Positions 24,206 through 60,840 of a stretch of DNA of 64,000 nt are shown in pieces (the stretch's first letter is position 1; each line of letters begins with the position of its first letter). The DNA comes from Schizophyllum amplum (taxonomy: Eukaryota; Basidiomycota; Agaricomycetes; Agaricales; Schizophyllaceae), in the NCBI GenBank assembly GCA_007026445.1, contig VDMD01000081.1:1-64000 (forward strand). Direction: 5' to 3'. The notes under the pieces are model-generated. The model worked only from the letters and a program-made list of their open reading frames with translations, did no database searches and was not told the DNA's origin. The position numbers and the translations under genes were made by a program.

Positions 24206-24229
24206 GAGCGCGCACACCCGCTACGGCAC

Positions 24230-24990
24230 GCCAGCTATACGAGACCAGACTCGCCAGCTATACGAGACCAGACTCGCCGGCTATCAGGGCCTTGAGGAAG
24301 TCGTAATCAGCCCCTTGAGGAAGTCGCAATCAGCCCCTTGAGGAAGTCGGGGCCAGCCCCTTGAGGAAGTCGTAGTCCGCCCCGCGGTCGATCGATTCTG
24401 CTCACCTGCACGACGCAGTTCTCCTCGACGAGGCGGTCGTCCTTCACGAGGTAGTCGTCCTTCACGAGGTGGTCATCCTCGACGATATTGCTCTCCTTCA
24501 CGACGCAGTTCTCCTGCACGACGCAGTTCTCCTTCACAACGCAGTTCTCCTCGACGAGGCGGTCGTCCTCGACGAGGCGGTCGTCCTCGACGAGGCGGTC
24601 GTCCTTCACGACGCAGTTCTCCTCAACGAGGTAGTCGTCCTCAACGAGGTAGTCGTCCTCGACGAGGTAGTCGTCCTCGCAGAGGCGGTCGTCCTCAACG
24701 AGGTGGTCGTCCTCAACGAGGTAGTCGTCCTCAACGAGGTAGCCGCCGAACGTGAGCTCGGATCCCTGCTCATGCGTCCACGGCTTCGCCTAGTCGCGCA
24801 TCCACGGCTTCGCCTAGTCGTGCGTCCACGGTATCGCCTAGTCGTGCGTCCACGGCTTCGCCATACCCGGCAGGGCTGTCGGGCTCTATGCATACATGAG
24901 CATGTACGCGAACAACGATGTACATGGGCGAGGAGCAATATGCGCCAGAATTTGCAGATACGCGCCAGAATTTGCAGATACGCGACAGAA
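24230..24990. repeat. Minisatellite cluster at the outer end of the left arm
   Basis: In order: two units of cagctatacgagaccagact; four of cccttgaggaagtcgcaatc; about 17 of an 18-bp ctcgacgaggcggtcgtc unit (24410-24745); about four 24-bp tccacggcttcgcctagtcg-type units (24765-24870); and three of cgccagaatttgcagata. The matching right-arm segment (60550-60840) has each seed only once or a few times. Confidence 0.85.
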
Positions 24991-25085
24991 TTGGCGCTGG
25001 ACGCCGCGACAGGAGCTGCAAGAACTCACTCTGATCGTAAATGAGCACGCGGGATCTTGAAGCGTGGCGCGCCGCTCGCCCTCGC

Positions 25086-26720
25086 ATTGAACGACATCCT
25101 CGCCGTCAAACTCGACCTCCGCGCCCGCATCACGTAGTCCATAGCGCAGTCGGGCACGCGAGGTACTGAGGGGAGGAAGGAAGGAGGGACGGCGGTCTCT
25201 CGCCTTGTGTAGTTGTACTTACTCAGCGAGTTCCGACTGCTTCACGACCAACCCGCGACTCAGAAATGGGATGCCCTGAGTGCTCTCGAAACAGTGAAAG
25301 ATATAAATGTCATTGCATTGAAGTGTACATACATACATACAACGCGGCCATGTATGTGAACCATGCATGTGAACGACGGGACACGTCAGCGACGCATCCG
25401 ACGTGAAGAAACCAAAAAGGAAGTCGAGCAAGTCGCTGTAGCCATCCTGGCTTCTGACACGGATACGTTGAAGGAGGATGAGCGCGAACATCGCGTTCGT
25501 GACGGCGGAAGGCCAGCGCTGGCGCTGCGAAAAAGACAGTCAGAATGAGGGCTACCGACTGCTCACTAGCGTAATGACATCCCCTTGGCGCCGAAGGACG
25601 GCGATTCAGAATTGCTGTTCATGCACTCTGTTGGATGGCAAGAGCCAAGACTGGTGTGAGGTGTCCGAGGCGCTAATCATGTGCGGGCGATTGGTGAGGA
25701 CATGAGGATTCCTCGTCGGGGTCGAGGTCGGTGGGTTGTTGAGCGTGTGCATAGCGGAACGAAGGCGTAGGTCCAATGCGCAAGACCGGCAGGTGACTGT
25801 CGGCGGACCGCGGGAGTACCAGTGCGGATGCGCGTCGGAAGAGGCCTGCGGTCGGATTGCCGGCACCAACGCGCGGCCTGACGACCTCGGCGTCGCTGCC
25901 CTGACCGCTGGTTCGGCGTCTTCTCCGTCGGTGGCCTCGTCGTGTTCTTCTGAAGATTTTTCGCAAGATGGAGACTATGATTCGTACGAGCCGGAGGCGT
26001 TGGTTGACAATATAGGATCAGGAAGTGATCGTCGGGGCCAAGGAGGAACCAGTGCAGGTGGGCGGGAGCCAGCGCCAAAGGGGAACCCTGTTGCTGGGCG
26101 AGACCTACTTGAGAGCAGGCACGGCAAAGATAGACCGAATGCGGAGCAAGAGTTCTCTGCGTGCATGATTAGGCTACGGAAACAACGTCGAGTTGTCGCG
26201 CGGCGCACCTGGCTGGTCCCTTCTCGTTTGCCAGTCCTTCACACAGACGTTCCGTTAGCCGGGCGAGACGACGACTGCACGCAGAGGACGTTTCGGGAGC
26301 GAATGCGCCGGCGTGGCTCCTTCTGCTGATGCAGCGCGACTGTTGGTACCGTCGATGTCCATCGTCGCATCCTTGCGTCGTCGGGAACGCTGCCGACCAA
26401 GCCGACGAGCCTTGTTCGCAGTGACGGGAGAGGCGCCATGGGAGATGCAGCGCCCTGCACCCCAAGAGGTTGAAAACCTGCAACACGCGAAACGAGCTCC
26501 TGTCGCCGACGCGGCCTTCGTGCACTTGGCGTCTTCGGCTTCGTCGGTCGCCTGTGTCGATGTTCGTGCGTGGGCGCACCGTCGCCTTGGCCATACGTCG
26601 TCGGGGAATGCGGCGGGGCGGTCTTCAAGGCGTGGGGGTTGCGTCGAGACGGGGGCCGCGCGGCCTCATCGTGCGCTCTTAAGGGCGGTCGGGCGTTGTC
26701 CAGTCGATAGTCATAGGTAG
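25086..26720 (-). other. Unassigned segment conserved in both arms (left copy)
   Basis: This segment is conserved as the reverse complement of 58640-60230. It contains Arg/Ser/Pro-rich frames (for example 26239-26628 and 25219-25491 on the minus strand). None runs in the same intact frame in both arms, and I recognise no domain. It may be a decayed multi-exon gene read on the minus strand, or a non-coding unit. Confidence 0.4.
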
Positions 26721-27591
26721 CAATGCGAGGAGAGATGCAGCGTAAGGTGGAATGAGGCCGTCGCTGTCGAATGAACAGGTCACGTCGTGAGATGATGATA
26801 GTAGGAAGAGAGAGGCGTCAGGGCCATTTGGGTTGCCTCCCGCCTTGTTTGTCGGCCTCCCGAGCTCGTCGTCGCGCCCTCCGATAGGCAGGAAGCATCA
26901 GGACATATACGCGAAAACATTATGGGCGCGCTCGCCAAGTCCCGCCCGCGCCATAAAACTCTACTAAAATCGACGAATGTCGGATGATTGTCGCTCTACT
27001 TCTGGGCGGGTCGCGCACCTTGTCAGCCGCTCTCTCGATGCCATGCCTGGTTTCTCCTCGTCGTATGGACCTCTCCGGACTCTGGCCATAAAGCGACATG
27101 AAGACGAAGCGCTTGCTGGCCCCTCTGCATGTCCTCCCCGGACGCCCGGACTTCTCCGATGCCACACATGGTCCCAAAATCCCCTTACAGGTGAGATCCA
27201 TTGCTTTCGACGCTCCCTGAATTCTTTCGCCTCCCTCCTTCACTTTCGACACTTTTTGGACATTTTCGACCTTGCGCCCACAACTCTTCATTTGAAATTA
27301 GAAACGCTTTCTTCCACATAAGGGAAACCATCCGCAAATGCTGATGAAACCCCATATTTGGTGGGGAGACTACATATTTGGGACTTTTTCCCAAGCGACG
27401 CCGTGCAACCGTTGCGTAATACGCCATATTCCGATCACGTGATGTTGAAGGGGGATGGGGGTCCTGCCGGACCAAGCGGCGCAAGCGACTTTGTTCGTCT
27501 GCATTCTCCACCACGCGACGGCGTCCTACGTCTACCTTTCCATCTTCACTCTATACTTCTCCTTCCTTACTACGTGACGCTGTCGAGCGCC
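26721..27591. other. Upstream region of the Ser/Thr-rich gene (left)
   Basis: Conserved in the right arm (57829-58600). Short frames on the minus strand (26920-27291) are not preserved as the same protein. It probably includes the promoter of the gene starting at 27592. Confidence 0.4.
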
Positions 27592-28129
27592 ATGAGCGAC
27601 TACGACTTCATTTTTGCGCAAGCCGATTATGTAGGCGACCTCGCACGCAACGTCGCTCCCATAGACGACTTCAGCTATCCTGACGACTTCAGCGGGCCCC
27701 CAGCACACGACAATCTCTACTATCAGCACAATGACGACCTTTTGTTCGACCGCGATGGGTGCGTGTACTTCGCTCATCTTGACCGAGTGTCGTGTTCATG
27801 GTGGCTTTCAGTCGCAGCAGCGAGAACGACGAGGCTCTCGACGCGAACGACAAGGCTCTCGACGCGAACTCGGACCACCAAGACGACGAGAACACGCCTG
27901 TGGGGTCAGCTGGGCTTCTGACGGATGTGCAGGCAATGGGCAACGGTCGCAGCGTGGCCTGAGTCGCAGCGGTGGCCTGAATCGCAGCGGTGGTCTGAGT
28001 CGCAGGTGCGTTCGCTATTCTCGCTCTCGACAATTGTTCGCTAACTCGGATACAGTTCTTCAGCCGTCTTTGGCACGGACTCGACCAACCTCATCGCTAG
28101 CTTCTACGACGTGCTCCCCGATGCATCTG

Positions 28130-28350
28130 CATCCTCCACCGCATCGATGCCCCCCACCGCATCGATACCCTCCACCGCATCGACATCCTCCACCGCATCG
28201 ATACCCTCCACCGCATCCACACCCTCCACCGCATCGACACCCTCCACCGCATCGATACCTCCCACCGCATCGATACCCTCCACCGCATCGACACCTCCCA
28301 CCGCATCAACATCCTCCACCGCATCAACATCCTCCACCGCATCGACCTCA
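28130..28350. repeat. In-frame 18-bp minisatellite (left arm only)
   Basis: About 12 units of tccaccgcatcgataccc, encoding STASIP/STASTP repeats. The right-arm gene has only SSTANSSGAS at this place. Confidence 0.9.
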
Positions 28351-28414
28351 TCCGCCGCGGGCTCCTCCCTCGCGTTCAATGTCGAGGTCCACCAGCCTGC
28401 CTCGCCTACACGCG

Positions 28415-28722
28415 AGTCCACCATCGTCGCTCCTGCAGACGAGTCCACCATCGTCGCTCCTGCACACGAGTACGGCACCGTCGCTCCTGCAGACGAGTCC
28501 ACCACCGTCGCTCCTGCACACGAGTACGGCACCGTCGCTCCTGCACCCGAGTCCACCATCGTCGCTCCTGCACTCGACGCGCCATCGCCGGACTCGTCTC
28601 CCTCTTCGTCATCGGGCTCGTCTCCCTCTTCGTCATCGGGCTCAAGCTCCTCTTCGTCATCGGGCTCGTCCTCCTCCTCGTCATCGGGCTCGTCTCCCTC
28701 TTCGTCATCGGGATCCTCCGAG
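28415..28722. repeat. Two in-frame minisatellites
   Basis: Units of tcgctcctgcagacgagtcc (27-30 bp) at 28415-28580, then 24-bp units of tcatcgggctcgtctccctc at 28600-28722 giving SSSSGSSP repeats. Far fewer copies in the right arm. Confidence 0.85.
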
Positions 28723-29389
28723 CATTCCTTTCCGCCCATGACGCCGCCTGCCCAGGTGGAGGATACCACGGCGACCTCCGAGTCCTCCACTTCCGGCACG
28801 AGCTCCGACGCTTCCGGCCGTGCCGCCCAGTCGAGTGCGGACACCGGAGATGTCGGCTCGATCGCCGCTACACCCGAGGACCAAGCACCGTCCGCCAACC
28901 AGCAGGCGTCCGCCAGCCAGCAGACGTTCGCGCCGTCCTCCGCTCTGCAGGCGTCCGCGCCGTCCTCCGCTCTGGAGGCGTCCGCGCCATCCACTGCCCA
29001 GCAGACATCTGTCTCCGTTCAGCAGACGTCGGCGCCGCCCTACGCTCAGCAGGCGTCTGTGCCGTCAATCACTCAGCAGACGTCTACGCCGTCTAGCACC
29101 CAGCAGACGATCGTCCCGGCGCTCACGTGCGTTCTCTCATACCTTTGTACTCTTTGTTCCATACTCATAGCATACAACAACAGCAGCGCGTCGAGCTCGG
29201 CGGCTCCCTCTCCCGCCATCATCATCAACGCCAGCAACGGTAGCAACACCAGCACCGCGTCGCAGCCTATTCGTGGGCTCCTTCCTCACTCGTTCTCGAG
29301 CGACCCCACTGTCTTCGCAAGACAGATGGCCCTCAGCCGCGCTCTCATCAGGAACGACCTTCCACTCCTTCAACTGCGGGAGCTGTCTG

Positions 29390-29500
29390 CGGCATCGGTG
29401 TCGAGCATCGCTAGCAGGTTCACCCGCGGCATCGGTGTCGAGCTTCGCTAGCAGGTTCACCCGCGGCGTCGGCGTCGAGCTTCGCTAGCAGGTTCACCCG
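29390..29500. repeat. 37-bp tandem triplication that shifts the frame
   Basis: Three near-identical adjacent units (29390-29426, 29427-29463, 29464-29500) starting cggcatcggtgtcgag and ending gcaggttcacccg. The right arm has one. Two extra units add 74 nt, shifting the frame. Confidence 0.95.
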
Positions 29501-29559
29501 CGCCGACCAGACCTTCCCTTCTTCTGCGTCGTCGACGGCGGGTGCTGGTAGTGCGACGT

Positions 29560-30660
29560 ACGCGCCGTCGAACTCGACCTACGCGACGTCGAACTCGACC
29601 CACGCGACGTCGAACTCGACCCACGCGACGTCGAACTCGACCTACGCGCCGTCGAACTCGACCCACGAGACGTCGAACTCGACCCACGCGACGTCGAACT
29701 TGACATACGCGCCGTCGAACTCGACCTACGCGACGTCGAACTCGACCCACGCGACGTCGAATCCGACCCACACCTTCAGGTCATCGAATGAGACGTTCAG
29801 GTCATCGGATGAGACGTTCGGGTCATCGGATGAGACGTTCGGGGCCCACTATAGGAGGTGGATGTTCTCGAGGGGCGCTACGGGTTCGGCGTCTTCCACC
29901 TCGGCTGCGGCGTCTTCCACCCCGGCTGCGGCGTCTTCCACCCCGGCTGCGGCGTCTTCTACCTCGGCTGCGGCGTCTTCCACTCCGGCTGCGGCGTCTT
30001 CCACCCCGGCTGCGGCGTCTTCCACCCCGGCTGCGGCGTCTTCCACCCCGGCTGCGGCGTCTTCCACCCCGGCTTCGGTGTCTTCTACCTCGGCTGCGGC
30101 GTCTTCCACCCCAGCTTCGGCGTCGCACGCGGGTTCGGCGTCTCTTGGTGGGACTTCAACGTCGCACGCGGGTTCGGCGCAGCCGGCCACGATTCCGGCG
30201 CAGCCGGCCACGATTCCGGCGCAGCCTACCGCGACTCCGGCGCCGTCTGCAACGTCGCAGTCGTCATCTGCTAGCGGAGGCGCGACAACGCTTACCGCGA
30301 CTTCGACGGGGTTGACCACGACTTCGACGGGATCGAGCTCGGTTTTGCAGTCATCGAGCGCGGCTTCGCAGTCACCGAGCGCGGCTTCGCTGCCCTCGAC
30401 CGCGTCGACCACGGCTCCGACGACGGTGACCACGCCATCGACATCGGCTACCACGCCGTCGACTTCGACTACCACGCCGTCGACATCGACTACCACGCCG
30501 TCGACATTGGCTACCACGCCATCGACATCGGCAACCACGCCGTCGACATCGGCTACCACGCCATCGACGTCCGCTACCACGCCGTCGACATCGACTACCA
30601 CGCCATCGACGTCGGCTACGACGCCGTCGACATCGGCTACCGCGGCATCGGCCGCTGCTG
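29560..30660. repeat. Three successive in-frame 21-bp minisatellites
   Basis: First tcgaactcgacctacgcgac-type units (29560-29765); then gcggcgtcttccaccccggc units coding SSTPAAA (29885-30125, about 11 copies against 3 in the right arm); then gtcgacatcgactaccacgc units coding TPSTSTT (30425-30655, about 10 copies against 3). Confidence 0.9.
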
Positions 30661-30797
30661 CCGCCTGGGCGTCCGCCCGCTTCAGCAGGACGCCCGGTAC
30701 ATGTGGTACGCCTTCGGATCTTAAGAGGCGCCGCGAGAAGAACGACGATGACGATGACGATGAGGGTCACCAGTCCAGGAGGCCGAGGACGCACTGA

Positions 30798-32413
30798 ACG
30801 TGATCGACGGGATGTGCTGCATCCAGCAGCCTCCATGGAGCTCCATTACGCACGATGCTCGAGCTCACAGTCGTCCACGGTCATCGTCGCGTCCACGCGA
30901 CAGACTCTTTCCCTCTCTTTCATTTGGCTCTTATACCCCACACGCCCACGACTATCCACGATCACACAGTACACATCTCTCACTCATCATCTACTTATCT
31001 CTTATTTATCATCATCATCTAAGCTCTCCTCCTCTCCTCCTCTCCATCGCGCTCACGCCCACTTCGGGCGCACATGCGCGCTTTCTCGGTCTTATGTTGC
31101 ATTACCTGTCTGCCATCTCTATTCTGCTGCATCTTTCTCGGTTTATGCACCTTCTCTACTGTTTCCGTATCTTCTCTACTGTTCCCGTATCCCACTAGCT
31201 TACGCTCATCCACATCATTTCTGTATGTTGCCTCTGTCGCCTCCATGCATCTGCTACCCTACTTGCATACTACTGTACTTTGTTGTACCAGTGTAGGCCT
31301 TCGTCGTCTGGACCAAGGCCTTGCTATCCTGTCTCGCTAGTATACTGCTGTATCTATTCTCGTGTATCCGTTCTCGTGTATCTGGCGTTCTCGTACTGTA
31401 CTGTGCTACCTATATCTTTCTCAAGGAAGGAAACAATGTATCGTGTTTTGTCGTGGAAATTCAGTGTGAGGTCAAGCACTGTTCGTGTTCGTCGGAGCGC
31501 CAACATGTCCTGCATATAAACTATTCTTTTTCTCAAACCATTCAGCTCGTCGACCTACACTGAGCTGGCATGTTATCGAAGCCGAACGGTGTTCTCTCCG
31601 GATCGACGCCGGATGTTCTTGTGTGTTCAGGTCACATTGTATACTCAAGTCGCTCCTTCCCTCCCTCCATACAGAAGCTTCAACATCGGACTTAAGCTTT
31701 TGCCCCGTACGCCCACACGGGCTTCGTGAGTGCAGCCGCACATGACCGCCCCGTTGCGAGGCTCGAAAAGCGCCAGCGCCGCATGTCGCCAGGACGAGAA
31801 CGGCATGCCATGCACCGCACGTTTGCCGGTAGCTTGGAGAGGTAGCATGTCGACGGAGAACCTTCTCCGACTGACAACCGACTGAGGAAGTCTTTGGCGG
31901 GAGCGGGGGAGGGCGGACATATACTGCAAGCATTGCCGTATCTATGCAGAGTCGCTCGCGAGTCGCCTTCGATAAGTCCGAGGATTCTCGGAGTTTGCCG
32001 AATCGTGACGAGTTGTTTGTACGCCCCTTGGTGAATGTCACACGTCTTCTCTTGCGCTCAACGTTCACGTTCACGTATCAATAGGAAATCACTGCTCTGA
32101 CCAAGACTGCGGCGCGTAGGAGAAATACCCGAAGACCTAAGTATGGCTTGCTCATTGACATGGAATCCCGCGAAATCAAGATGGGACGGCTCAGAAGACC
32201 TACCGTCCATCCATGGATGATGGGCAGCCGTACGCGTACGGGGCGATAGTGCACCTTCTGTCGAGTCTCCTTTCAATATGGCGCATCTCTGCCTGCCGCG
32301 TAGACTTGTGATGTGCTCTTGGTGCTTCATAAGAACCGTAGAGGCGGCTTCGATGACCGGCTTGTCGTTCGCTCCTGGCGCCTCTTCCTCCCGCGTCGAT
32401 CGTACTTTCAAGA
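30798..32413. other. Inter-gene region with a left-specific stretch
   Basis: Homologous to 54539-55717 at both ends. About 31510-31925 has no counterpart in the right arm, which has about 160 bp of different sequence instead. The minus-strand frame 31472-32074 (200 residues) lies mostly in this stretch and has no recognisable motif. No TATA box like the right copy's was found before 32414. Confidence 0.5.
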
Positions 32414-34168
32414 ATGGATAGCGACAGCCCTCAGGCGAAGAAACAATACCAGCAGTGAGTCTCTCGTCTGCGCTACCCTGCAGCTCGCTGAGGTGTTGAA
32501 GCTTCGTTCAATATTGCCTCCAGTGGTCGAGCATAAGTGAGTTTCAGTCGTCATCGTGACGTGCGCTCACGTATCGTATAGCATTGCTGTACTACGACTT
32601 CTCGCTCACGTTCGCGGACGAGCGCAAGCTCATCTGGGGACGTAAACTCGGTGTCACGACATTGCTCTTCGTCCTCTGTCGATATGCGCTGGTTGCGAAC
32701 GTCCTGTATCTCCTAGCGATCTCCGATATAATTGTCGAGGTGCGTCACGACTTGTACTGCTGCATTGGGAATTGCTGACGTCTTCTAGTAAGCTTCACTG
32801 CCTGTCCTCCTTACGTCTCCGCTCGTATTTACGAACGGACCTTTCAGTTGCGATTCTGCGTACCAGAGTATCTCTGCCCTCAGTGTCCTTGGCAGAACAG
32901 CTGTTTTAAGTGCGTTTTTACTTTCATCCTGAGGCTCGTCGGTCATTAAATTCATCCAGGCACCTGGGCTACACGAACGTGGGCTGTGTGGGGACGCAAT
33001 ATATATATCATCACGTTCCTCGGGCTTCTCGTCTGCGCTTGCACAGCTCTCGACTGCGTAGGCTCTTCTATCTTTCCTCGCGCTTCCATTTCTCACCCTC
33101 GTACGCAGTACCAAGCCTCTGGCGCTCAATGTACAGGGCCCGCGACACACCAAGAGTAAGCCCCTCTGCGTGGTTCTGTGTACGCCTGAGTACTAACACT
33201 TGTTATCAACAGAGGTATGTACTTAGCGCGACGCCCGCATGACACAGTAGCGCTCGAACTCACAAATGCAGTCTCTGACGTTCTCTCAATAATGGTTGTC
33301 GTCTTCGAGTTCTCATCAACAGCGCTGACGATGTATCGCTGTATCCCCGCGATGCGGGAGCAGAGGAGAATGGAGACACCGATTACCTCTCAGCAGACGT
33401 TGGGCGTCGCGATCTTTCAGCAAGGTACGTGCGCATCCATGCCTTCCTTGATATGATCTGATGTTCGCAAGGCCTGATGTATTACTGGTAGGGCTCTGCG
33501 ACTGATTTTCACCCGCGCAACTGCTGACAAGTCATGAAAGCGCTGTATCGCTCTTCACCGTCACGGCCCTGATTCTAAATTACGTAAGTCACAAGTTGCT
33601 CCTGCGTCGTCTTCGGATACTGACCGTGCCCAGGTGACCGCTGTACGTCGCGCCACTTTGCGCCGCTGAAGATGTTTGACAACGGTAACCACAGGAAGGC
33701 TTCTTCCAACGCTTACTCAACGCATTCACCCTACCGTAAGCGCCCCATGTCTTGACTCTTCAATTCGCTCTACCTCAGCCTTTTTTCCCTAGCATCTCAG
33801 GCATACTCACTGCCCGATTCATCTTGCATCTGCGGTCTATCGCCGGTCAAGATGTCGTCTCGTCGCAACGCGCCACGGGAGACGCAACGCAACTCTCGCG
33901 CCTGTCCTTTACTGGCGACGTCTCGCGCACCGCTGCGGATGAGCAAGATATCGTCTCGCAGACAGATTCCGTCGCGATGGCGGGCCTGCGAGATCAGGCT
34001 GTGATGGATGACGGCTCTCTCCCAGCAGACGATGAAGGCAGGTACCGCTTTCGTTGGGCCACGCTTGATACTGACGGGCTCTCAGATATTTTAGAGGCGC
34101 CTCTTCGCCCGACCTCGGCGCACTGGAAAGGGAAGAAGAGAAAGTCGTTCACACCCGAGGATGTTTGA
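32414..34168 (+). CDS. DUF6533-type multi-span membrane protein (left copy)
   Basis: Start at 32414 (MDSDSPQAKKQYQQ). Three small 5' exons (32414-32454, 32502-32536, 32582-32739) carry the DUF6533 hallmark ALLYYDFSLTFADERKLIWG followed by LLFVLCRYALVANVLYLLAI. Further exons hold WATRTWAVWGRNIYIITFLG, a long segment LTNAVSDVLSIMVVVFEFSS and a hydrophilic tail ending ...GKKRKSFTPEDV at 34168. About six to seven membrane spans are likely, giving a 7TM-like plasma membrane protein. The family is widespread in Agaricomycetes and its function is unknown. From the third exon on the copy is almost identical to the right-arm copy, introns included: 4 of 138 tail residues differ, and 1 of 79 in an internal frame. 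Confidence 0.85.
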
Positions 34169-35113
34169 GTGTGATGCAAGTATCTAGTTAGTAAGCTCAG
34201 CTAGGTCGATGTAAGTGTACGTGTCTGTCTCCGAGGCATTGAAATTGTTTGCTCGTCAATGATCGTTCTCAATCGCCAATGACACCAAGGGCATTGAAGT
34301 TGTTGAGCTTTGTGTACAGCTATTCCGAGCAGCGACCAACAGTCCGAGCAGCGACCAACTCATTTGGTAAGTCCGGGAATGCGCGGACGCTTCCGTCATG
34401 GCACAGTTCGGCCATATTCCGGCTGAGTGTGTGCCAGCGTTGCGCGGTTCGAAGGTTGCAGGCTAGGTCTCCGGATCACACTGGGATTCAGCCTCAAGGA
34501 CCTGTTCATTCATGCCGATCTGAACGCGTCGTGGTCAGTATACGCTAGTATGCAGTCAGAATCGATTTCCACTCAGAATAGGTTCAACAACACGGTGGTC
34601 ACGGCGCCAGTGTACACAGGGAGGTGCAGTACAACACAAAGAGCTGTGGCGCTGGTACAATACAGATCCCGGGGTATCTGGGATGCGGGTACGCGTAGGG
34701 ACACAGCGACGATATACTAGGTAAAGACAGTAAGTGAAGGATGGTGGGTGCTAGTGATACAAAACGTCCGAGAGACGAGTCATACGCTGCAGGAGGACTG
34801 ATCATGTGTGGTGGAGAGGAGGAGAAATTATATGTATGTAGAGAAGATGATGAGATGCCGAGAGACAGATGCGTGTGTGGAGACGAAGAATTAATGCGGG
34901 AGACAGGAATGCGAGATGATATGGATGGTATGCGGGACGATGTGTATGGTATGCGAGCTCGGGAGATGGTATGCTGAGGCGGAAGACGAGAAGAGACGAC
35001 GAAGATGAGAGTGACAGATTTGTAAGTACATAAATTAGATCATAACTTGCGGAAAAAGACGATTGGAACTGAAGGTACGCCATAGCGTCCGCGCGCGACC
35101 CATCGTACGACAT
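34169..35113. other. Convergent intergenic region (left)
   Basis: Lies between two convergent genes and is conserved as the inverse of 51862-52770. No further gene recognised. Confidence 0.5.
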
Positions 35114-39760: not shown

Positions 39761-39770
39761 ATACTTAAAA
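39761..39770 (+). promoter_or_regulatory. TATA-like element of the secreted-protein gene
   Basis: atacttaaaa lies about 105 bp before the ATG at 39876. Inference from position and sequence only. Confidence 0.45.
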
Positions 39771-48739: not shown

Positions 48740-49601
48740 CGGGTGGGAATTGATGATGATGGTAGGAAGCAAGGAGAGATGGCTTGTTTCTCGCCCAAAG
48801 TGCTCGCGATTTCTACTGGAGACTCGCTGTCTGTCTAGTTATGTGGCCTTCAGGTAACAGATACTGACGAGGGAGGACACAAAAAGACCTGACTCTCCAA
48901 CCTCTGCGCTCGGAAACTTCGAAGTGCTGCTGCTAAAGAAGACGGTTCGACATACTCCTCTGCCAGCGTTACTTCAAAATTACTGCTAAGGGTCTCTCTC
49001 GCGTTTCCCACTGCCTCCTGTCGAGCTTCCATTAGTTCCGACGGCGAAAGAGATGGTTCTCAACAAACAATGCGTCACGAAATCCCGAGCTCGCGCGCTC
49101 TTGAATGTTTTCCTCCTTCTGAAAGCCAAGCGACCGTCAGGAAGCCCTCGAGGTCCGTCTCAGATGAGTCCTTCACTTCTCTGGGCTCTTTGCATGTTGT
49201 CATGGGCGCCTACCCACTGCGGACTGGCCTTCCATTTCTCTTTCCGGAGATAATTCGCTCGCATCCGGCTTATCGCTCGCTTATCGTTCATAAAGTTGCC
49301 TTATTAGGCATCTTTCTTGCCTCGTGGTGGCGAACAAAGAGCGCGCGGGATGCTTACAAAGGGCTCCCGCACGTGGGGTACCGTAATGTTCGGCGCAGGT
49401 AGAAAAAGTCGCCCATTGTTGTCCGTGTTTGTGTTATTTGACTTATTCGTGACGTTGATTGTCTGCTGCCACTGACCGTCTTCCTGACACTCACGTCTCT
49501 CTGGCACTCACGCCTCTCTTCTCCTGCCAACACTCTACCACCGACCGGCACCTCACTCATCTCTACCTCACCCTCATCCACTACCACCCTCATCCTTCGC
49601 C

Positions 49602-51861: not shown

Positions 51862-52770
51862 ATGTCGTACGACGGGTCGCGCGCGGACGCTACGGCGTAC
51901 CTTCAGTTCCTACCGTCTTTTCCCGCAAGTTATGATCTAATTTATGTACTTACATATCTGTCACTCTCATCTTCGTCGTCTCTTCTCGTCTCCCGCCTCA
52001 GCATACCATCTCCCGAGCTCGCATACCATACACATCGTCCCGCATACCATCCATATCATCTCGCATTCCTGTCTCCCGCATTAATTCTCCATCTCCACAC
52101 GCGCATCTCTCTCTCGGCATCTCATCATCTTCTCTACAGCTGCTGTTCCTCCTCTCGACCACATATGGGTTTCCCTCATGCAGCATATGACTCGTCTGTC
52201 GGACGTCTTGTATCACTAGCACCCACCGTCCTTCAATCACGGTCTTTACCTAGTAGATCCCAGCCGCGTCCCTGCGCGTACCCTTATCCCGATACCCCGA
52301 GATTTGTACTGTAGCGCGGCCAGTGCCACAGCGCCTTGTATCGTACTATAACTCCCCATGTACGCTGGCCCCGCGACCACCGTCGTGCTGAACCTGTTCT
52401 GAATGGAAATCAATTCTGACTATATACCAGTGTATGCCACGACGCGTTCAGCTCGGCACGAATGAACAGTTGTTGAGACTGAGCACCAGCATGAGTATCC
52501 GAACACCTACTAACACAGAATCAGCCGGAATATGGCCGAGCTGCGTCATGACGGAAGCGTCCGCGCACGCGCTGTGATCTTACTGACTTACCAAATGAAT
52601 GAGTTGGTCGGTGCTCGGAATGGCTGTAGACAAAGTTCAACAACCTGGCCTTGGTGTCATCTGCGATTGAGAACGATCATCAGAGAGCAAACTCTTTCAA
52701 TCCGTCGGAGACAAACACGTATACTTAGATCGACCTAGCTGAGCTTACTAATTAGATACTTGCATCACAC
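51862..52770. other. Convergent intergenic region (right)
   Basis: Inverse counterpart of 34169-35113, containing the 3' ends of two convergent genes. No gene recognised. Confidence 0.5.
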
Positions 52771-54538
52771 TCAAACCTCCTCGGGTGTGAACGACTGTCT
52801 CTTCTTCCCTTTCCAGTGCGCCGAGGTCGGGCGAAGAGGCGCCTCTGAAATATCTGAGAGCCCGTCAGTATCAAGCGTGGCCCAACGAAAGCGGTACCTG
52901 CCTTCATCGTCTGCTGGGAGAGAGCCGTCATCCATCACAGCCTGATCTCGCAGGCCCGCCATCGCGACGGAATCTGTCTGCGAGACGATATCTTGCTCAT
53001 CCGCAGCGGTGCGCGAGACGTCGCCAGTAAAGGACAGGCGCGAGAGTTGCGTTGCGTCTCCCGTGGCGCGTTGCGACGAGACGACATCTTGACCGGCGAT
53101 AGACCGCAGATGCAAGATGAATCGGGCAGTGAGTATGCCTGAGATGCTAAGGAAAAAAGGCTGAGGTAGAGCGAATTGAAGAGTCAAGACATGGGGCGCT
53201 TACGGTAGGGTGAATGCGTTGAGTAAGCGTTGGAAGAAGCCTTCCTGTGGTTACCGTCGTCAAACATCTTCAGCGGCGCAAAGTGGCGCGACGTACAGCG
53301 GTCACCTGGGCACGGTCAATATCCGAAGACGACGCAGGAGCAACTTGTGACTTACGTAATTTAGAATCAGGGCCGTGACGGTGAAGAGCGATACAGCGCT
53401 TTCACGACTTGTCAGCAGTTGCGCGGGTGGGAATCAATCGCAGAGCCCTACCAGTAATACATCAGGCCTTGCGAACATCAGATCATATCAAGGAAGGCAT
53501 GAATGCACACGTACCTTGCTGAAAGATCGCGACGCCCAACGTCTGCTGAGAGGTAATTGGTGTCTCCATTCTCCTCTGCTCCCGCATTGCGGGGATACAG
53601 CGATACATCGTCAGCGCTGTTGATGAGAATTCGAAGACAACAACCATGATTGATAGAACGTCAGAGACTGCATTTGTGAGTTCAAGCGCTACTGTGTCAT
53701 GCGGGCGTCGCGCTAAGTACATACCTCTGTTGATAACAAGTGTTAGTACTCAGGCGTACACAGAACCACGCAGAGGGGCTTACTCTTGGTGTGTCGCGGG
53801 CCCTGTACATTGAGCGCCAGAGGCTTGGTACTGCGTACGAGGGTGAGAAATGGAAGCGCAAGGAAAGATAGAAGAGCCTACGCAGTCGAGAGCTGTGCAA
53901 GCGCAGACGAGAAGCCCGAGGAACGTGATGATATATATATTGCGTCCCCACACAGCCCACGTTCGTGTAGCCCAGGTGCCTGGACGAATTTAATGACCGA
54001 CGAGCCTCAGGATGAAAGTAAAAACGCACTTAAAACAGCTGTTCTGCCAAGGACACTGAGGGCAGAGATACTCTGGTACGCAGAATCGCAACTGAAAGGT
54101 CCGTTCGTAAATACGAGCGGGGACGTAAGGAGGACAGGCAGTGAAGCTTACTGGAAGATGTCAGCAATTCCCAATGCAGCAGTACAAGTCGTGACGCACC
54201 TCGACAATCTTATGAGAAATTGCTAGAAGATACACGACGTTCGCAACTAGCGCATATGGACAGAGAACGAAAAGCAACGTAGTGACGCCGAATTTACGTT
54301 CCCAGATAAGCTTCCGCTCGCTTGCGAATGTGAGCGAAAAGTCGTAGTATAGTAGCGCTATACGACGCGTGAGCCCACAATGACGACGATTGCCCCCAAA
54401 ACTCACTTATGCTCGACCACTGTAGGCAATACTGGACGAAACTTCGACAGGTCAGTGCGCTAGTACGTGATGCGTTATCGGATGTGAGAGTGCTCACTGT
54501 TGGTACTGCTTCTCCGCCTGTGGGCTGTCGCTTGCCAT
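52771..54538 (-). CDS. DUF6533-type multi-span membrane protein (right copy)
   Basis: Start at 54538 (MASDSPQAEKQYQQ); the tail ends ...GKKRQSFTPEEV at 52771. Exon layout matches the left copy, including a 56-nt first intron with a CTGAC branch-like site. From about 54200 to 52780 it is almost the same as the left copy, introns included. The exon before it (YALVANVVYLLAISHKIVEV) instead matches the third copy at 63900-64000, so the gene looks mosaic. Several hydrophobic spans predict a membrane protein. Its function is unknown for the family; a receptor-like role is speculation. Confidence 0.85.
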
Positions 54539-54596
54539 CCCTGCCCGTACAATCGATGTGGGAGGGAAGATGTGCAGTTACGGCGAGCCAATGTTG

Positions 54597-54603
54597 ATTT
54601 ATA
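54597..54603 (-). promoter_or_regulatory. TATA box of the right DUF6533 copy
   Basis: TATAAAT on the minus strand, about 60 bp upstream of the ATG at 54538. The aligned left-arm sequence (gatgaccggcttgtcg) lacks it. Confidence 0.5.
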
Positions 54604-55717
54604 GGGCCTCAAAGCGGCCTCTACGGAGTCTACGCGGAGGATGAAGACCACGGGATAGAGAGGTAAATCGATAGAAGGTACCCGCCCCATCACCATGTAC
54701 GACTGCTCACCATACAGGACTCTCATGTATGAATGATGGCGTACCTTTGGAACTGTCCCGTCTTGATTTCGCGGGATTCCATGTTGAGCAAGTCATACTT
54801 AGTACTGTAGGTGGTCATCTCTCGCGCTGGCGTCTTGATTGGAGCAGTGCTTTCCCATTGGTACGTGAACGTTAAGCGCAAGAGAAGACGTGTGACAGTT
54901 ATCAAGGAGCGTACGAAGCCCCGGTCACGCTTCGGCAAGTTCCGAGAGCCTCTCTGGGGCTCTCGCGCATAGTCGTTGAGGCCTGAGGCTTTGATGACGT
55001 TATTGATGAGGGTATCTGTAAGCTGACCAAGGCCCTCCGACTGGTAGGTCAACTGGACAGTCTATTGGAGATACTCTTCCTTTGTACACGAGCAGACGGT
55101 AGTGCTCGTCCTCACATTGAATATTCACGACAAAACACGATACATTGTTTCCTTCCTTGAGAAGAATGTAGGTAGCACAGTACAGTACGAGAGAAAATAC
55201 GCGAGAAGAGATACATCAGTATACTAGCGAGACAGGATAGCATGACCTTGGCCCGGACGACTAAGGCCTACACTGGTACAGCAAAGTACAGTGCGAGTAT
55301 GGTAGCAGATGGATGGAAGGGACGCAGGCGACGTACAGTAACTATGTGGTGCATAAGCTAGTGGGATACGGAAACAGTGCATAAACCGAGAACGATGCAG
55401 CAGGATAGAGATGGCAGACAAGTGATGCAACATAGACCGAGAAAGCGCGCATGTGCACCCGAAGTGGGCGTGAGCGCGATGGAGAGGAGGAGAGCATAGA
55501 TGTGATGATAAATAGAAGATAAGCAGATGATGGGTGAGAGATGTACTGTGCGATCGTGGATAGTCGTGGGCGTGTGGGGTATAAGAGCCAAATGAAAGAG
55601 AGGGAAAGAGTCTGTCGCGTGGGTGAGACGAGGACCACGGACGACGGTGAGCTCCAGCATCGTGCGTAATGGAGCTCCATGGAGGCTGCTGGATGCAGCA
55701 CATCCCGTCGATCACGC
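54604..55717. other. Inter-gene region (right)
   Basis: Homologous at both ends to 30798-32413. It contains a minus-strand frame, 54723-55052 (109 residues, ...KYDLLNMESREIKTGQF...). The left arm keeps only its second half (ESREIK.G) and does so with frame changes, so coding status is unclear. Confidence 0.4.
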
Positions 55718-57828
55718 TTAGTGCGTTCTCGACCTCTGGGTCTGGTGCCCCTCATCGTCATCGTCGTTCTCCTCGCGACGCCGCTTGAGATACGAAGGCG
55801 TACCGCATGTACCGGGCGTCCTGCTGAAGCGGGCGGACGCCCAGGCGGCAGCAGCGGCCGATGCAGCGGTAGCCGACGTCGATGGCGTGGTAGCCGATGT
55901 CGACGGCGTGGTAGTCGAAGTCGATGACAAGGTCACCGTCGTCGGAGCCGTGATCGACGCGGTCGAGGGCAGCGAAGGCGCGCTCGATGACTGCAAAACC
56001 GAGCTCGATGACTGCAAAACCGAGCTCGACCCCGTTGAAGTCGCGGTAAGCGTTGTCGCGCCTCCGGACTGCGACGTTGCAGGCGCCGGAGTCGCGGTAG
56101 GCTGCGCCGAACCCGCGTGCGACGCTGAACCCCCACCAAGAGACGCCGAAGCCGGGGTGGAAGACGCCGCAGCCGGGGTGGAAGACGCCGCAGCCGGGGT
56201 GGAAGACGCCGAACCCGTAGCGCTCGTCGAGAACATCCACCTCCTGTAGTGGGCCGCGAACGTTTCATCCGATGACCTGAAGGTGTGGGTCGGATTCGAC
56301 GTCGTGTGGGTCGAGTTCCACGGCGCGTATGTCGTACTACCAGCACCGGCACCGCTCGCGGTCGACGACGCAGAAGAAGGGAAGGTCTGGTCGGCGCGGG
56401 TGAACCTGCTCGCGAAGCTCGACGCGCTCGACACCGACGCCGCGGACAGCTCCCGCAGTTGAAGGAGTGAATGGTCGTTCCTGATGAGAGCGCGGCCGAG
56501 GGATAGTTGCGTCGCGAAGACAGTGGGGTCGCTCGAGAACGAGTGAGGAAGGAGCCCACGAACACGCTGCGACGCGATGCTGGTGTTGTTGACAATGACA
56601 GGAGAGGGAGCCGCCGAGCTCGACGCGCTGCTGCTGCTGTAAGGTATGAGTATGGAACAACTTGGAAGACAAAGGAACCTAAGAACACACCTGAGCGCCG
56701 GGACAATCGTCTGCTGGGTGCTAGACGGCGCAGACGTCTGCTGAGTGATTGACGGCACAGACGCCTGCTGAGCGTAGGGCGGCGCCGAGGTCTGCTGAGC
56801 GGACGCCGGCACGGCCGTTTGCTGGGCAATGGATGGCGCGGACGCCTGCAGAGCGGAGGACGGCGCAAACGCCTGCTGGACGGAAGACGGCGCCGACGCC
56901 TGCTGGGCAATGGATGGCGCGGACGCCTGCAGAGCGGAGGACGGCGCGAGCGTCTGCTGGCTGGCGGATGCCTGCTGGCTGGCGGCCGAAGCTCGGTTGT
57001 CGGGTATAGCGGCGATCGAGCCGACATGTCCGGTATCCGCAGTCGACTGGGCGGCACGGCCGGAAGCGTCGGAGCTCGTGCCGGAAGTGGAGGACTCGGA
57101 GGTCGCCGTGGTATCCTCCACCTGGGCAGGCGGCGTCATCGGCGGCTGGGTGTGCTCGGAGGTTCCCGATGAGGAGGAGGAGGTCGAGCCCGATGACGAA
57201 GAGGGAGACGAGCCCGGCGACAGCGCGGTGAGCGAAGGAGCGACAATGGCGGAGTCGTGCGCAGGCGGGGCAGGCTGGTGGACCTCGACAATGGACGCGC
57301 CGGAGGAGTTAGCGGTGGAGGATGTCGATCCGTCGGGGAGAGCGCCGTGGAAGGTAGCGATGAGGTTGGTCGTGTTGGTGCCAAAGACGCCCGAAGCACT
57401 GTATATAAGTTAGCGAACAATTGTCGAGAGCGAGAATAGCGAACGCACCTGCGACTCAAGCCACCGCTGCGACGACTGAGGCTACCGCTGCGCACATTGC
57501 CCCCCGCCTGCTCATTCGCCGAGGGCACAGATGACCATGCGGGAGTATTCTCATCGTGTTGATAGTCTTCGCTCGCCCAGAGCTCATCGTCGTCCTTGGT
57601 ATCGCGACTGAAAAGCCACAATGAACACGCCACTCAGTCAAGATGAGCGAAGTATACGCACCCATCGCGGTCGAACAAAAGGTCGTCATCGTGCTGATAG
57701 TAGAGATTGTCGTGTGCTGGGGGCCCGCTGAAGTCGTCCGGGTAGCTGAAGTCGTCTATGGGAGCGACGTTGCGTGCGACGTCGCCTGCATAATCGGCTT
57801 GCGCGAAAATGAAGTCGTAGTCGCTCAT
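55718..57828 (-). CDS. Ser/Thr/Ala-rich, probably nuclear protein (right, intact copy)
   Basis: Four exons (57662-57828, 57449-57607, 56691-57398, 55718-56636) join in consistent phase to 650 residues. The N-terminus is acidic and aromatic (MSDYDFIFAQADYAGDVA, DDFSYPDDFSGPP), like an acidic activation region. The middle is Ser/Thr/Ala/Gln-rich with repeats (QASAPSS, SSTPAAA, TPSTSAT). A more ordered stretch HSFSSDPTVFATQLSLGRAL...HSLLQLREL lies near residues 360-400. The C-terminus KRRREENDDDDEGHQTQRSR is a likely bipartite nuclear localisation signal. No DNA-binding domain was recognised. The 54-nt third intron is a multiple of 3 without stops, so retaining it would keep the frame. Confidence 0.7.
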
Positions 57829-58640
57829 GGCGCTCGACAGCGTCACGTAGTAAGGGGGGAGAAGTATAGATTGAGAGGGAAAGGTAGACGTAGGACGCTG
57901 TCGCGTGGTGGATAATGCAGACGAACAAAGTCGCTGCGTCGCTTTGCCCGGCAGGACCCCCATGCCCCTTCAACATCACGTGATCGGAATATGCGTATTA
58001 CGTAACGGTTGCACGCGTTTGGGAAAAGTCCCAAATATGGGGTTTCATCAGCATTTGCGGATGATTTCCCTTATGTGGAAGAAAGCGTTTTCCAATTTCA
58101 AATGAAGAGTTGTGGGCGCAGGGTCAAAAAAGTCCAAAAAGCGTCGAAAGTGAAGGAGGGAGGCGAGAAAAATTAACGGAGCGTCGAAAACAATGGGACT
58201 CACCTGTAAGGGGATTTTGGGACCATGTGTGGCATCGGAGAAGTCCGGGCGTCCGGGGAGGACATGCAGAGGGGCCAGCAAGCGCTTCATCTTCATGTGG
58301 CTTTATGGCCAGAGTCCGGAGAGGTCCATACGACGAGGAGAATCCAGGCATGGCATTGAGAGAGCGACAGAGCGCGCGACCTGCGGAAAAGTGGAGCGAC
58401 AAACATCCGAAATTCGTCGATTTTAGTAGAGTTCCAGGGCGCGGGCGGGACTTGGCGAGCGCGCCCACAATGTTCTCGTACATGTCCTGATGCTTCTTGC
58501 CTATCGGAGGGCGCGACGACGAGCTCGGGAGGCCGACAAACAAGGCGAGAGCCAACCCAAATGGCCCTGACGCCTCTCTCTTCCTACCACCATCATCTCA
58601 CGACGTGACTTGTTCATTCGACAGCGACGGTCTCATTCCT
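57829..58640. other. Upstream region of the right Ser/Thr-rich gene
   Basis: Inverse counterpart of 26780-27591. The plus-strand frame 58110-58490 is not preserved as the same protein in the left arm. It probably includes the promoter. Confidence 0.4.
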
Positions 58641-60230
58641 CCTTTACGCTGCATCTCTCCTCACATTGCTACATACATCTATCGACTGGACGACGCACCC
58701 AATGGCCCTCAAGAGAGCACGACGATGGACGCGCGGCCCCCATCTCGACGCAACTCCCACACTTTGAAGTCACCCATCCCCGTCTCTCAACAACGCAGGC
58801 GACGGTGCGCCCGCGCTCGGATATGGACTCAAGCGACCAGCGAAGCCGAAGACGCCAGAGTGCACGAAGGCCGCGTCGGCGACGGGAGCTCGCTTCGCGT
58901 GTTGCAGGTTTTCGACCTCTTGGGGTGTAGGGCGCTGCATCTTCCATGGCGCCTCTCCCTTCACCGCAAACTCCTCCACCACGAACAAGGCTCGTCGGCT
59001 TGGTCGGCAGCCTTCCCGACGACGAAAAGATGCGACGATGGACGTCGACGGTGCGCTGCATCAGCAGAAGGAGCCACGCCGGCGCATTCGCACCCGAGCC
59101 GTCCTTGGCGTGCAGTCGTCGTCTCGCGCGCCGAATGGAACGTCTGTGTGAAGGAAGGGCAACCAGGAAGGGACCAGCCAGGTGCGCCGCGCGATATCTA
59201 GACGTTGTCTCCGTAGTCTAATCATGCACACAGAGAACTCTCGCTTCGCATCCGGCCCCCCGTCGTCATGCCTGCTCTCGGTCTGGTCTCGCGCTGCGAC
59301 AGGGTTGTCCATTTGCGCCGGCTTCCCGCCCACCTGCACCGATTCCTCCTTGGCCCCGACGATCACTTCTCAATCCCATGCGGTCGACGAACGGCCTCCG
59401 TTTCGTACACGGCCGTCTTGCGAGCCATCTTCGGACGGACATGACGAGGCCGGCGACGGAGAATACGCCGAACCTGCGGCCAGGGCAGCGACGCCGAGGT
59501 CGTCAGCCGCGCGTTGGTGCCGGCAATGCGACTGCAGGCCTCTTCCGACGCGCATCCGCACTGGTACTCCCGCGGTCCGCCGACAGTCACCTGCCGGTCT
59601 TACGCACTGGACCTACGTCTTCGTTCCCCTATGCACACGCTCAACAACCCACCGACCTCGACCCCGACGATCGAATCCTCATGTCCTCACCAATCGCCCG
59701 CACATGATTAGCGCCTCGGACACCTCAAACCAGTCTTGGCTCTTACCATCCAACAGAATTCATGAACGGCATTCTTGAATCGCGGTCCTTCGGCGCCAAG
59801 GGATGGATGGACGTTACGCCAGTGAGCAGTCGGTGGCCCACATTCTGACTGGTTCTCAGCAGCGCCGGCATCGGTTTTCCGCCGTCACGGACGCGATGTT
59901 CGCGCACATCCTCCTTCAACGTATCCGTGTCAAAAGCCAGGGTGGCTACAGCGACTTGGTCGGCTCCCTTTCTGGTTTCTTCCCCTCGGATGCGTCGCTG
60001 ACGTGTCCCCGTCGTTCACATACATGGCCGCGTTGTATGTATGTACGCTTCAATGCAATGAGATTTATATATGTCACTGTTGCGAGAGCACCCAGGGCAT
60101 CCCCTTCCTGTGTCGCGAGTAAGTACAACTTCAAGTCGCCGAACAGTACTACTGGGCGAGAGACCGCCGTCCCTCCTATCTTCCTCCCCCCATTACTAAT
60201 CCTCGCGTGCCCGACTGCGCTATGACCTAC
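58641..60230 (+). other. Unassigned segment conserved in both arms (right copy)
   Basis: Counterpart of 25086-26720. Frames resemble those of the left arm (for example RVAGF.PLGV followed by GAAS.MAPLPS), but here a stop separates the two parts. I cannot decide between a decayed gene and a non-coding unit. Confidence 0.4.
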
Positions 60231-60549
60231 ATGGCACGGACGCAGAGGTCGTCGAGTCCAACGACGAGGGCATCGTCCATGGATTCATCCACGATCAGAG
60301 TGCGTGCTCGCAGCTTCTGTAGTGTCCGGCGCCAGTTCTCACGCATATCTTCAATCTCTGTCTCTCTCTCCTCATGTAGCGCTCTCTCCGAATTAGCATG
60401 CGATTATGGCCAGACGCGACGCGCGATTGGCTCGAACATCGCATAGGCGCGTGGCTCGCCTGGCATGTGCGGTGAAGAGGACTGATCGTTCACATAGGCA
60501 TGATGAACCTGCCTCGTCCATCGACCTCAATGCCTATCGCGATCGCATT

Positions 60550-60840
60550 ATAAAACGTGAAGAACCGTACATGGCAAGACGGATTACTTGTGTGCGTGCG
60601 CCATGCTCGCGTATATGCATAGAGCCCAAAAGCCCTGCCGGACTGGCGTCGTGGACACATCCGGGCTTGGCGAAGCCCTTGAAAGTCCGGCTCACGTTCA
60701 ACCATCTCGTCAAGGTGAACAATATTGTGAAGAACAACAACAACGTGAAGGAGATCAACATCGATCGACCGCGGGCGGACTGCGACTTCAAGAAGGCGCA
60801 GGCGAGTCTGGTCTAGTATGCGCCGTAGCAGGCGTGCATG
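60550..60840 (+). other. Outer end of the right arm
   Basis: Matches 24206-24980 inverted but without the minisatellites. The plus strand reads HLVKVNNIVKNNNNVKEI and DRPRADCDFKKAQASLV, the seeds of the repeats expanded at 24230-24750. The last shared sequence is around ctggtctagtatgcgccgta at about 60812-60830. Confidence 0.7.

What the first reader, a model, noticed from the sequence alone, without database searches (positions are those of the whole stretch)
24206..60840. A large imperfect inverted duplication with 14-kb and 12-kb arms around a 10-kb single-copy spacer
Three gene pairs and their flanks appear in mirror order in 24.2-38.3 kb and 48.7-60.8 kb, while the spacer genes (secreted protein, AIF-like, SH3-RA) occur once. 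Each arm pairs a membrane protein with two probable nuclear proteins. That set could be a co-inherited sensing and regulation module or simply a segmental duplication. Long inverted repeats can drive inversion of the spacer, gene conversion and hairpin-mediated instability. A head-to-head join of two haplotypes in the assembly is the main alternative.
Basis: partly seen in the sequence, partly recalled or inferred. Interest (0 to 1): 0.85.

Follow-up and report, generated by a model that had tools for sequence, protein, structure and literature searches.

The report
Recombining inverted gene-cluster duplication in mushroom
A mushroom chromosome carries a small cluster of genes several times over, two copies facing each other, and one copy is a patchwork of its neighbours, which suggests that the copies have been overwriting each other; it is a clean example of a known process rather than a new kind of system.

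Summary
The inverted duplication is real: arm A ~24.3-38.2 kb (forward) and arm B ~48.75-60.8 kb (reverse), main blocks 74-86% identical. The window belongs to Schizophyllum amplum. The contig holds two more units, C (62.5-69.0 kb, no gene X) and D (~76.8-84.8 kb, more diverged, no membrane gene), so this is part of a four-unit array. The membrane gene is DUF6533. The two 'nuclear' genes are repeat-rich; strong matches in this genome lie only on this contig. Identity is a sharp mosaic: arm B's membrane gene and upstream DNA match C on one side (99.4%; A 69.6%) and A on the other (98.3%; C 70.8%) of 23 shared bases at 32,731-32,753 (chi-square 625, 0 of 2000 shuffles). This points to ectopic gene conversion or crossing-over among direct and inverted copies. 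A haplotype misjoin fits poorly: extra copies, unrelated outer flanks, spacer pieces without a second allele, B distinct from A and C. No reads were available. A co-inherited sensing module and spacer inversion are not shown. A well-resolved member of a known kind.

The parts
24273..38200 (+). Unit A (left arm)
   Evidence: Inverted match to unit B; outermost match 24273-24311 is a short one to unit D; A-B identity per 100 bases falls to 64% from 38.2 kb and 47% at 38.4 kb
25100..27500 (.). W: conserved stretch upstream of Y, apparently non-coding, present in A, B, C (in part) and D (most diverged)
   Evidence: A/B indels 6 of 29 multiples of three; no Pfam match for three of its open frames
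27560..30800 (+). Gene Y of unit A: repeat-rich protein with a basic C-terminus (exon structure not settled)
   Evidence: Open frames; 17 of 20 A/B indels multiples of three; no Pfam family over its cut-off; matches on C290, plus one 169-base 70% match on C240
32414..34170 (+). DUF6533 membrane-protein gene of unit A (annotated protein BD626DRAFT_520945, P0002, assigned to A by its sequence; ends approximate)
   Evidence: PF20151 43 bits, cut-off 24.1
32731..32753 (.). Switch point in A coordinates: 23 bases identical in A, B and C; B resembles C to the left and A to the right
35117..37477 (-). Gene X of unit A: repeat-rich protein with a Cys/His C-terminus
   Evidence: 11 of 11 exon indels A/B multiples of three
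38321..48751 (.). Spacer between the arms (short secreted-like protein, AIF-like, gene at 42.6-43.9 kb, SH3-RA)
   Evidence: Pfam Pyr_redox_2, SH3_1, RA; no allelic copy of 40,350-42,440 or 45,050-48,050; 93% copy of 42,441-45,040 on C281
39351..39590 (.). About 237-base dispersed repeat with terminal inverted repeats (MITE-like) inside the spacer
   Evidence: 92-100% copies on five other contigs, shorter pieces on more; 26-base inverted arms, 77% complementary
48751..60803 (-). Unit B (right arm), a mosaic of A-like and C-like sequence
49602..51861 (+). Gene X of unit B
52784..54530 (-). DUF6533 gene of unit B, chimeric (P0003, assigned by sequence; ends approximate)
   Evidence: PF20151
55718..57860 (-). 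Gene Y of unit B (ends approximate)
61325..61789 (.). AIF-gene fragment between units B and C
18627..19124 (.). Second AIF-gene fragment, left of unit A
62505..64000 (-). Start of unit C (DUF6533 gene, P0004 by sequence); the unit runs on to 69,023 of the contig outside the window

Best explanation
The inverted duplication is the window's part of a local array of four related units (A forward; B, C, D reverse) in Schizophyllum amplum. The unit is W - gene Y - DUF6533 gene - gene X, possibly once reaching into the AIF-like gene. Units arose by successive tandem and inverted duplication with losses (C has no X; D has no DUF6533 gene). Afterwards copies exchanged sequence by ectopic homologous recombination. 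B/C exchange, or recent shared ancestry of B and C, explains their near-identity in and upstream of the 5' part of the DUF6533 gene. A/B exchange explains the near-identity in the 3' part of that gene and in patches of X. The result is a chimeric DUF6533 gene in unit B, switched at the end of the conserved exon. Shown: the copies, their order on the contig, the mosaic, the switch point, the reading-frame constraint. Inferred: that the exchange was gene conversion or crossing-over in the living fungus, its direction, and the order of duplications. No dedicated machinery is needed; it is duplication, loss and exchange between copies.
For: Comparison of the whole 110,606-base contig with itself, and searches of the genome, find units C and D. 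Left of the switch (A 31,801-32,730) B and C agree at 866 of 871 columns and A and B at 594 of 854; right of it (32,754-34,170) A and B agree at 1393 of 1417 and B and C at 984 of 1389. Informative sites from A 31,000 to 34,180: 5 A=B and 283 B=C to the left, 396 A=B and 13 B=C to the right, max chi-square 625, reached in 0 of 2000 shuffles (15 A=C sites left out of that test). The switch sits in 23 bases identical in all three, at the end of the conserved exon, in line with crossing-over in S. commune favouring locally similar exons (PMC4209137, abstract). Inside one exon of X, dS between A and B falls from 0.24 and 0.15 to 0.01-0.05. X and Y behave as coding in A/B: indel lengths multiple of three in 11 of 11 and 17 of 20 (DUF6533 gene 2 of 3), against 6 of 29 in W, 9 of 22 and 3 of 10 in intergenic stretches and 2 of 7 upstream of X. 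In a tree of 21 DUF6533 proteins that I picked from the 120 listed of 169 hits, the four S. amplum proteins form a clade (95/92) beside S. fasciatum plus S. commune (95/94).
Against: No reads were available, so the arm-spacer junctions rest on the assembly. A-B identity across X is uneven (0.75-1.00 per 100 bases between 34.2 and 37.9 kb), so more than one event is needed and the tract ends there are fuzzy. Multiples of three among indels in Y partly follow from repeat units of 18, 21 and 27 bases. The shuffle test does not model uneven mutation rates, though a reversal of which pair is identical is hard to get from rates alone. Other parts of the unit give weaker and mixed signals: at A 26.0-26.6 kb A=B sites outnumber B=C, at 26.8-31 kb B=C mostly leads. 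The S. amplum clade may itself be drawn together by exchange, and the tree program warned of long branches among its rows.
Confidence: 0.85

Rival explanations
1. Head-to-head misjoin of two haplotypes in the assembly: A and B are alleles of one locus.
For: Divergence of this size between haplotypes exists in the genus: 14% between two S. commune parents (PMC4209137 abstract), pi 0.20 or 0.13 (PMC9187340 section 6). The assembly holds at least one redundant contig: C107 repeats C35 at 99.35% over 3542 columns, 6 mismatches and 14 gap openings. Rpb1_5 finds five places where three would be expected from memory; one is that redundant copy, one stays unexplained.
Against: Units C and D exist on the same contig in B's orientation. 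The outer flanks 19.2-24.25 kb and 60.85-62.5 kb have no BLAST match to each other. Spacer pieces 40,350-42,440 and 45,050-48,050 find themselves and no allelic copy; a 10.3-kb search showed only a 2.6-kb piece on C281 that does not extend (one search did not list the query's own place, so it is weak alone). The known redundant contig differs mostly by gaps, i.e. looks like the same haplotype. B differs from A outside the patches and from C outside its own, so it looks like a locus of its own.
Confidence: 0.05
2. No exchange: the patches of high identity are simply regions under strong purifying selection.
For: Some high-identity stretches are exons (X exon 1 and the Cys/His end of X).
Against: A=B identity spans the 3' part of the DUF6533 gene including its introns, where C is about 70% alike. 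Silent sites are near-identical in one part of an X exon and at dS 0.24 in another. The identical pair changes from B=C to A=B across 23 bases.
Confidence: 0.03
3. One-step origin: unit B was made by break-induced copying from A into a C-like unit at the DUF6533 exon, with all later differences by mutation.
For: On B's inner side of the switch all aligned sequence is A-related up to the inner end of homology (C has no counterpart beyond the DUF6533 gene), and just outside it B is C-like.
Against: A-B identity on that side ranges from 75-87% (34.2-34.9 kb, 36.6-37.0 kb) to 99-100%, and dS varies more than tenfold within one exon of X; one event does not give that without later exchanges.
Confidence: 0.1
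4. A selected sensing-and-regulation module: a seven-helix receptor-like protein kept together with two nuclear partners.
For: DUF6533 proteins include SNB1, a predicted seven-helix membrane protein whose gene family is reported as required for fruiting-body patterning (PMC10949477: title and abstract start in the listing, section 8 read). X and Y mostly keep their frames. X, and Y of unit D, have basic stretches and Cys/His C-termini.
Against: C lacks X, D lacks the DUF6533 gene, and the C190 relative stands without X in the stretch compared. X changes almost neutrally (dN 0.075, dS 0.095 over the exon compared). No expression or interaction data.
Confidence: 0.08

Closest known systems
Inverted-repeat palindromes with arm-to-arm gene conversion (human Y palindrome P6; PMC3723533, abstract start in the search listing only)
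   Same: Inverted arms around a spacer, arm-to-arm similarity kept by exchange.
   Different: [quoted passage not shown] here arms are mostly 74-87% alike with patches at 97-100%, in a fungus, and a third direct copy also took part.
Drosophila Hsp68/Hsp70 duplicates under concerted evolution (passages of PMC3355041 on Hsp68; the Hsp70 pair and its inverted order are recalled)
   Same: Local gene copies kept alike by recurrent conversion or ectopic recombination.
   Different: Here orphan genes plus a DUF6533 gene, with a chimeric gene as product.
DUF6533 / Snowball (SNB1) family
   Same: PF20151 over the curated cut-off in A, B, C and the C190 relative.
   Different: These are S. amplum paralogues; whether they do what SNB1 does is unknown.
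Exon-biased crossing-over in S. commune (PMC4209137, abstract and section 14 read)
   Same: Switch point at the end of a locally similar exon.
   Different: There between homologous chromosomes in a cross, and only one complex conversion tract was seen; here between paralogous copies.

Membership tests
Segmental duplication array with ectopic gene conversion | Three or more related units at one locus | tested here: met
   Units A, B, C, D on contig C290
Segmental duplication array with ectopic gene conversion | Sharp switch of which copies are most alike | tested here: met
   Max chi-square 625, 0 of 2000 shuffles; identities on either side
Segmental duplication array with ectopic gene conversion | Near-identity includes silent and intron sites | tested here: met
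Segmental duplication array with ectopic gene conversion | Exchange seen between individuals or in a pedigree | not testable with these tools
   One assembly, no reads, no population data
Haplotype misjoin | Homology continues into the outer flanks | tested here: not met
   No match between 19.2-24.25 kb and 60.85-62.5 kb
Haplotype misjoin | Second allele of neighbouring single-copy DNA present in the assembly | tested here: not met
   Two spacer pieces find themselves and no allele; 2.6-kb non-extending piece on C281. A strain whose second haplotype was removed from the assembly would also pass, so this is partial
Haplotype misjoin | Half read depth on arms, no reads across junctions | not testable with these tools
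   No reads held
DUF6533 family | PF20151 over curated cut-off | tested here: met
   A 44.7, B 32.0, C 39.4, C190 37.8 bits against 24.1
DUF6533 family | Seven transmembrane helices as predicted for SNB1 | tested here: inconclusive
   Model shows seven helices but mean pLDDT is 38.5
C2H2 zinc-finger proteins (X and Y) | Match to a zinc-finger profile | tested here: not met
   No finger family at E up to 1 for X and Y frames of unit A; none at 0.01 for X of unit D
C2H2 zinc-finger proteins (X and Y) | Conserved Cys/His set with beta-beta-alpha fold | tested here: inconclusive
   Three invariant Cys and two invariant His in 4 rows (X of A, B, D; Y of D); hairpin plus helices, mean pLDDT 59
Mating-type B locus (STE3 pheromone receptors) | STE3 domain in the membrane protein | tested here: not met
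   Only PF20151 found (exon piece at E up to 1; whole proteins at 0.01)

The most novel reading that the evidence does not exclude
The array works as a small diversity generator: exchange between direct and inverted units, steered to the conserved exon, keeps making new chimeric seven-helix DUF6533 proteins linked to rapidly changing partners X and Y, perhaps for self/non-self or developmental recognition in a highly variable genus.
Probability: 0.06. Interest if true: 0.65.

Novelty: new member of a known kind. Interest (0 to 1): 0.32.

Why it matters
It gives a clean case of apparent exchange between paralogous copies, both direct and inverted, in a genus known for extreme variation, with a switch point placed within 23 bases at the end of a conserved exon. 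It makes a testable prediction: other S. amplum isolates should carry different mosaics and possibly the spacer in the other orientation. It also warns that in such genomes 14% divergence alone tells neither alleles nor paralogues apart; extra copies, flanks and mosaic structure do.

Tried and rejected
Mating-type receptor locus: rejected, the membrane protein is DUF6533 and no STE3 match appeared. Second haplotype on C281: the match is 2.6 kb only and does not extend in the 80,000 of 128,480 bases compared. Telomere: no run of three or more TTAGGG units on the contig. RNA genes: no Rfam family at gathering score in the window, no tRNA or tmRNA. Plasmid collection search with the 42.6-43.9 kb gene: no match. 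Homologues of X: the end of unit D's X found only its own annotated protein, 1 of 28 candidates; unit A's hand-joined X model found none of 15 candidates, not even its own, so that search says nothing. The DUF6533 structure model was too poor to compare with solved folds, so no fold search was run. The two 10-kb DNA searches of the genome did not list the query's own place, so they are weak on absence; I therefore repeated the spacer test with shorter queries, which did find themselves. Searches for print: 'Auriculariopsis ampla' (recalled synonym) gave 6 papers holding the name once each; DUF6533 gave 2; Schizophyllum with segmental duplication 19, of which 10 listed; Schizophyllum with gene conversion and inverted 8. 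None of the listed titles or abstract starts is about this array; a genome paper of this species was not among those listed.
Full report
What is there. The main blocks are 31,986-38,321 against 54,947-48,751 (86.3%), 25,113-28,142 against 60,251-57,312 (84.2%), and shorter ones between. A unit reads W (a conserved stretch without a gene I could name), gene Y, a DUF6533 gene, and gene X on the opposite strand.

Where it is. The window is bases 1-64,000 of contig C290 (110,606 bases) of a 49.65-Mb genome in 309 contigs. The X protein of unit D is annotated as BD626DRAFT_576153 of Schizophyllum amplum, on a contig of the same length; the species is in the Schizophyllaceae.

It is not a lone pair. 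Searching the genome with pieces of arm A, and comparing the whole contig with itself, brings up unit C at 62.5-69.0 kb and unit D at about 76.8-84.8 kb, both in B's orientation. C stops at the end of the DUF6533 gene, and no X was found with it. D has W, Y and X but no DUF6533 match. X was found in this genome only on C290, at A, B and D (18 candidates scored). For Y, the DNA matches are on C290 except one 169-base match at 70% on C240, and the end of D's Y finds only itself among 3 candidates. The DUF6533 domain has 13 matches over the family cut-off among 26 candidates genome-wide, three of them in this array and one a close relative on C190. The tool warns that such counts are lower bounds.

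The spacer. It holds a short secreted-like protein, an AIF-like oxidoreductase (Pyr_redox_2), a gene without a Pfam family over its cut-off and an SH3-RA gene. AIF-gene fragments near 18.6-19.1 and 61.3-61.8 kb suggest the duplicated unit once reached into the AIF gene; that is inference. A 2.6-kb piece of the spacer has a 93% copy on contig C281 that does not extend in the 80 kb compared.

Mosaic. An alignment of the units shows the nearly identical pair changing along the unit. From A 31,801 to 32,730, upstream of and in the 5' part of the DUF6533 gene, B and C agree at 866 of 871 columns while A and B agree at 594 of 854. From 32,754 to 34,170 A and B agree at 1393 of 1417 while B and C agree at 984 of 1389. 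Between A 31,000 and 34,180 there are 697 sites where B sides with A or with C; the best single switch falls between 32,730 and 32,754, with 5 A=B and 283 B=C sites before it and 396 and 13 after it, chi-square 625, reached in 0 of 2000 shuffles. Fifteen A=C sites were left out of that test. The switch lies in 23 bases identical in A, B and C (32,731-32,753) at the end of the conserved exon. Elsewhere in the unit the signal is weaker and mixed: A=B leads at 26.0-26.6 kb, B=C mostly leads from 26.8 to 31 kb. Patches of A-B near-identity recur in X at 34.9-36.0 and 37.0-37.9 kb (mostly 95-100% per 100 bases, one window at 92%), with 75-97% between them and 77-87% at 34.2-34.9 kb. Within one X exon dS falls from 0.24 and 0.15 to 0.01-0.05. 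Selection on the protein does not explain that; exchange does. Seplyarskiy and colleagues report that crossovers in S. commune prefer locally similar exons (PMC4209137, abstract), which fits the place of the switch. They saw only one complex conversion tract between homologues (section 14), so I do not claim a general rule.

Are the genes real? In A against B, indel lengths are multiples of three in 11 of 11 cases in the X exons, 17 of 20 in Y and 2 of 3 in the DUF6533 gene, but in 6 of 29 in W, 9 of 22 and 3 of 10 in the intergenic stretches and 2 of 7 upstream of X. Repeat units of 18, 21 and 27 bases help to produce this in Y. X evolves fast, dN 0.075 and dS 0.095 over the compared exon. 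X of A, B and D and Y of D share three Cys and two His positions near the C-terminus. A model of that end shows a hairpin and helices at low confidence (mean pLDDT 59); no zinc-finger profile matched. So 'probable nuclear' remains a guess from basic stretches.

The membrane protein. DUF6533 is confirmed for A, B, C and the C190 relative. A Coprinopsis member, SNB1, is predicted to have seven membrane helices (PMC10949477 section 8), and the paper's title reports the family as required for fruiting-body patterning. My model shows seven helices but at a confidence too low to lean on (mean pLDDT 38.5). In a tree of 21 proteins picked by me from the 120 listed of 169 hits, the four S. amplum proteins group together (95/92) beside S. 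fasciatum plus S. commune (95/94), so this expansion looks species-specific, with two cautions: exchange can draw copies together, and the program warned of long branches.

Misjoin. In this genus 14% divergence does not by itself rule out alleles. What speaks against a misjoin: the further units, outer flanks without any match to each other, spacer pieces that find themselves and no second allele, and B being different from A and from C outside the exchanged patches. One redundant contig was found: C107 against C35, 99.35% with 6 mismatches and 14 gap openings, which looks like the same haplotype assembled twice. The polymerase-domain check gave five places; with three expected from memory and one explained by C107, one remains unexplained. 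A control stretch of C190 had its best listed match (90% over 8.5 kb) on C190 itself, 23.5 kb away, and listed matches over 500 bases on other contigs were at 67-79% (26 of 203 candidates scored, some rows not listed, and the query's own place not listed either, so this control is weak). An assembly from which a second haplotype had been removed would look the same in these tests. Read data would settle it.

Verdict. A four-unit array, apparently specific to this species, in which inverted and direct copies seem to have exchanged sequence, leaving a chimeric DUF6533 gene. The process is known; the case is clean. The idea of a selected sensing module or of spacer inversion is open and untested.

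Noticed in passing
L010 (G000:C190:255001-265000): A 2-2.7 kb stretch (about L010:2461-5206) recurs at 70-79% on many contigs, on C283, C66, C177, C308 and C21 at spacings of mostly about 10-12 kb; no clear coding identity seen in its open frames, only a sub-threshold miRNA-family match.
   Followed up: partly
G000:C190:231520-241413 and 255001-265000: A duplication of about 10 kb at 87-90% identity, 23.5 kb apart on one contig, close to the C190 DUF6533 relative.
   Followed up: no
Contig C290:97640-103341 (L008): Helitron-type element with Helitron_like_N, DUF6570 and PIF1 helicase domains near the contig end.
   Followed up: partly
window 39351-39590: MITE-like repeat with telomere-like CCTAACC runs inside and 26-base inverted ends, 92-100% alike on five other contigs.
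   Followed up: partly
window 15400-18500: Very low-complexity, strongly skewed DNA (GC skew 0.45 at 16-18 kb) with long open frames in several frames.
   Followed up: no
Contig C290:71253-75369 (L005, L006): A weak AMP-binding match (below its cut-off) and a NAD_binding_4 match, together like an NRPS-like reductase, between units C and D.
   Followed up: partly
G000:C112:1968819-1970925 and 3196047-3197843: Two Rpb1_5 polymerase-domain places on one contig; genome-wide that leaves one more than the three expected (from memory) after setting aside the redundant C107.
   Followed up: no
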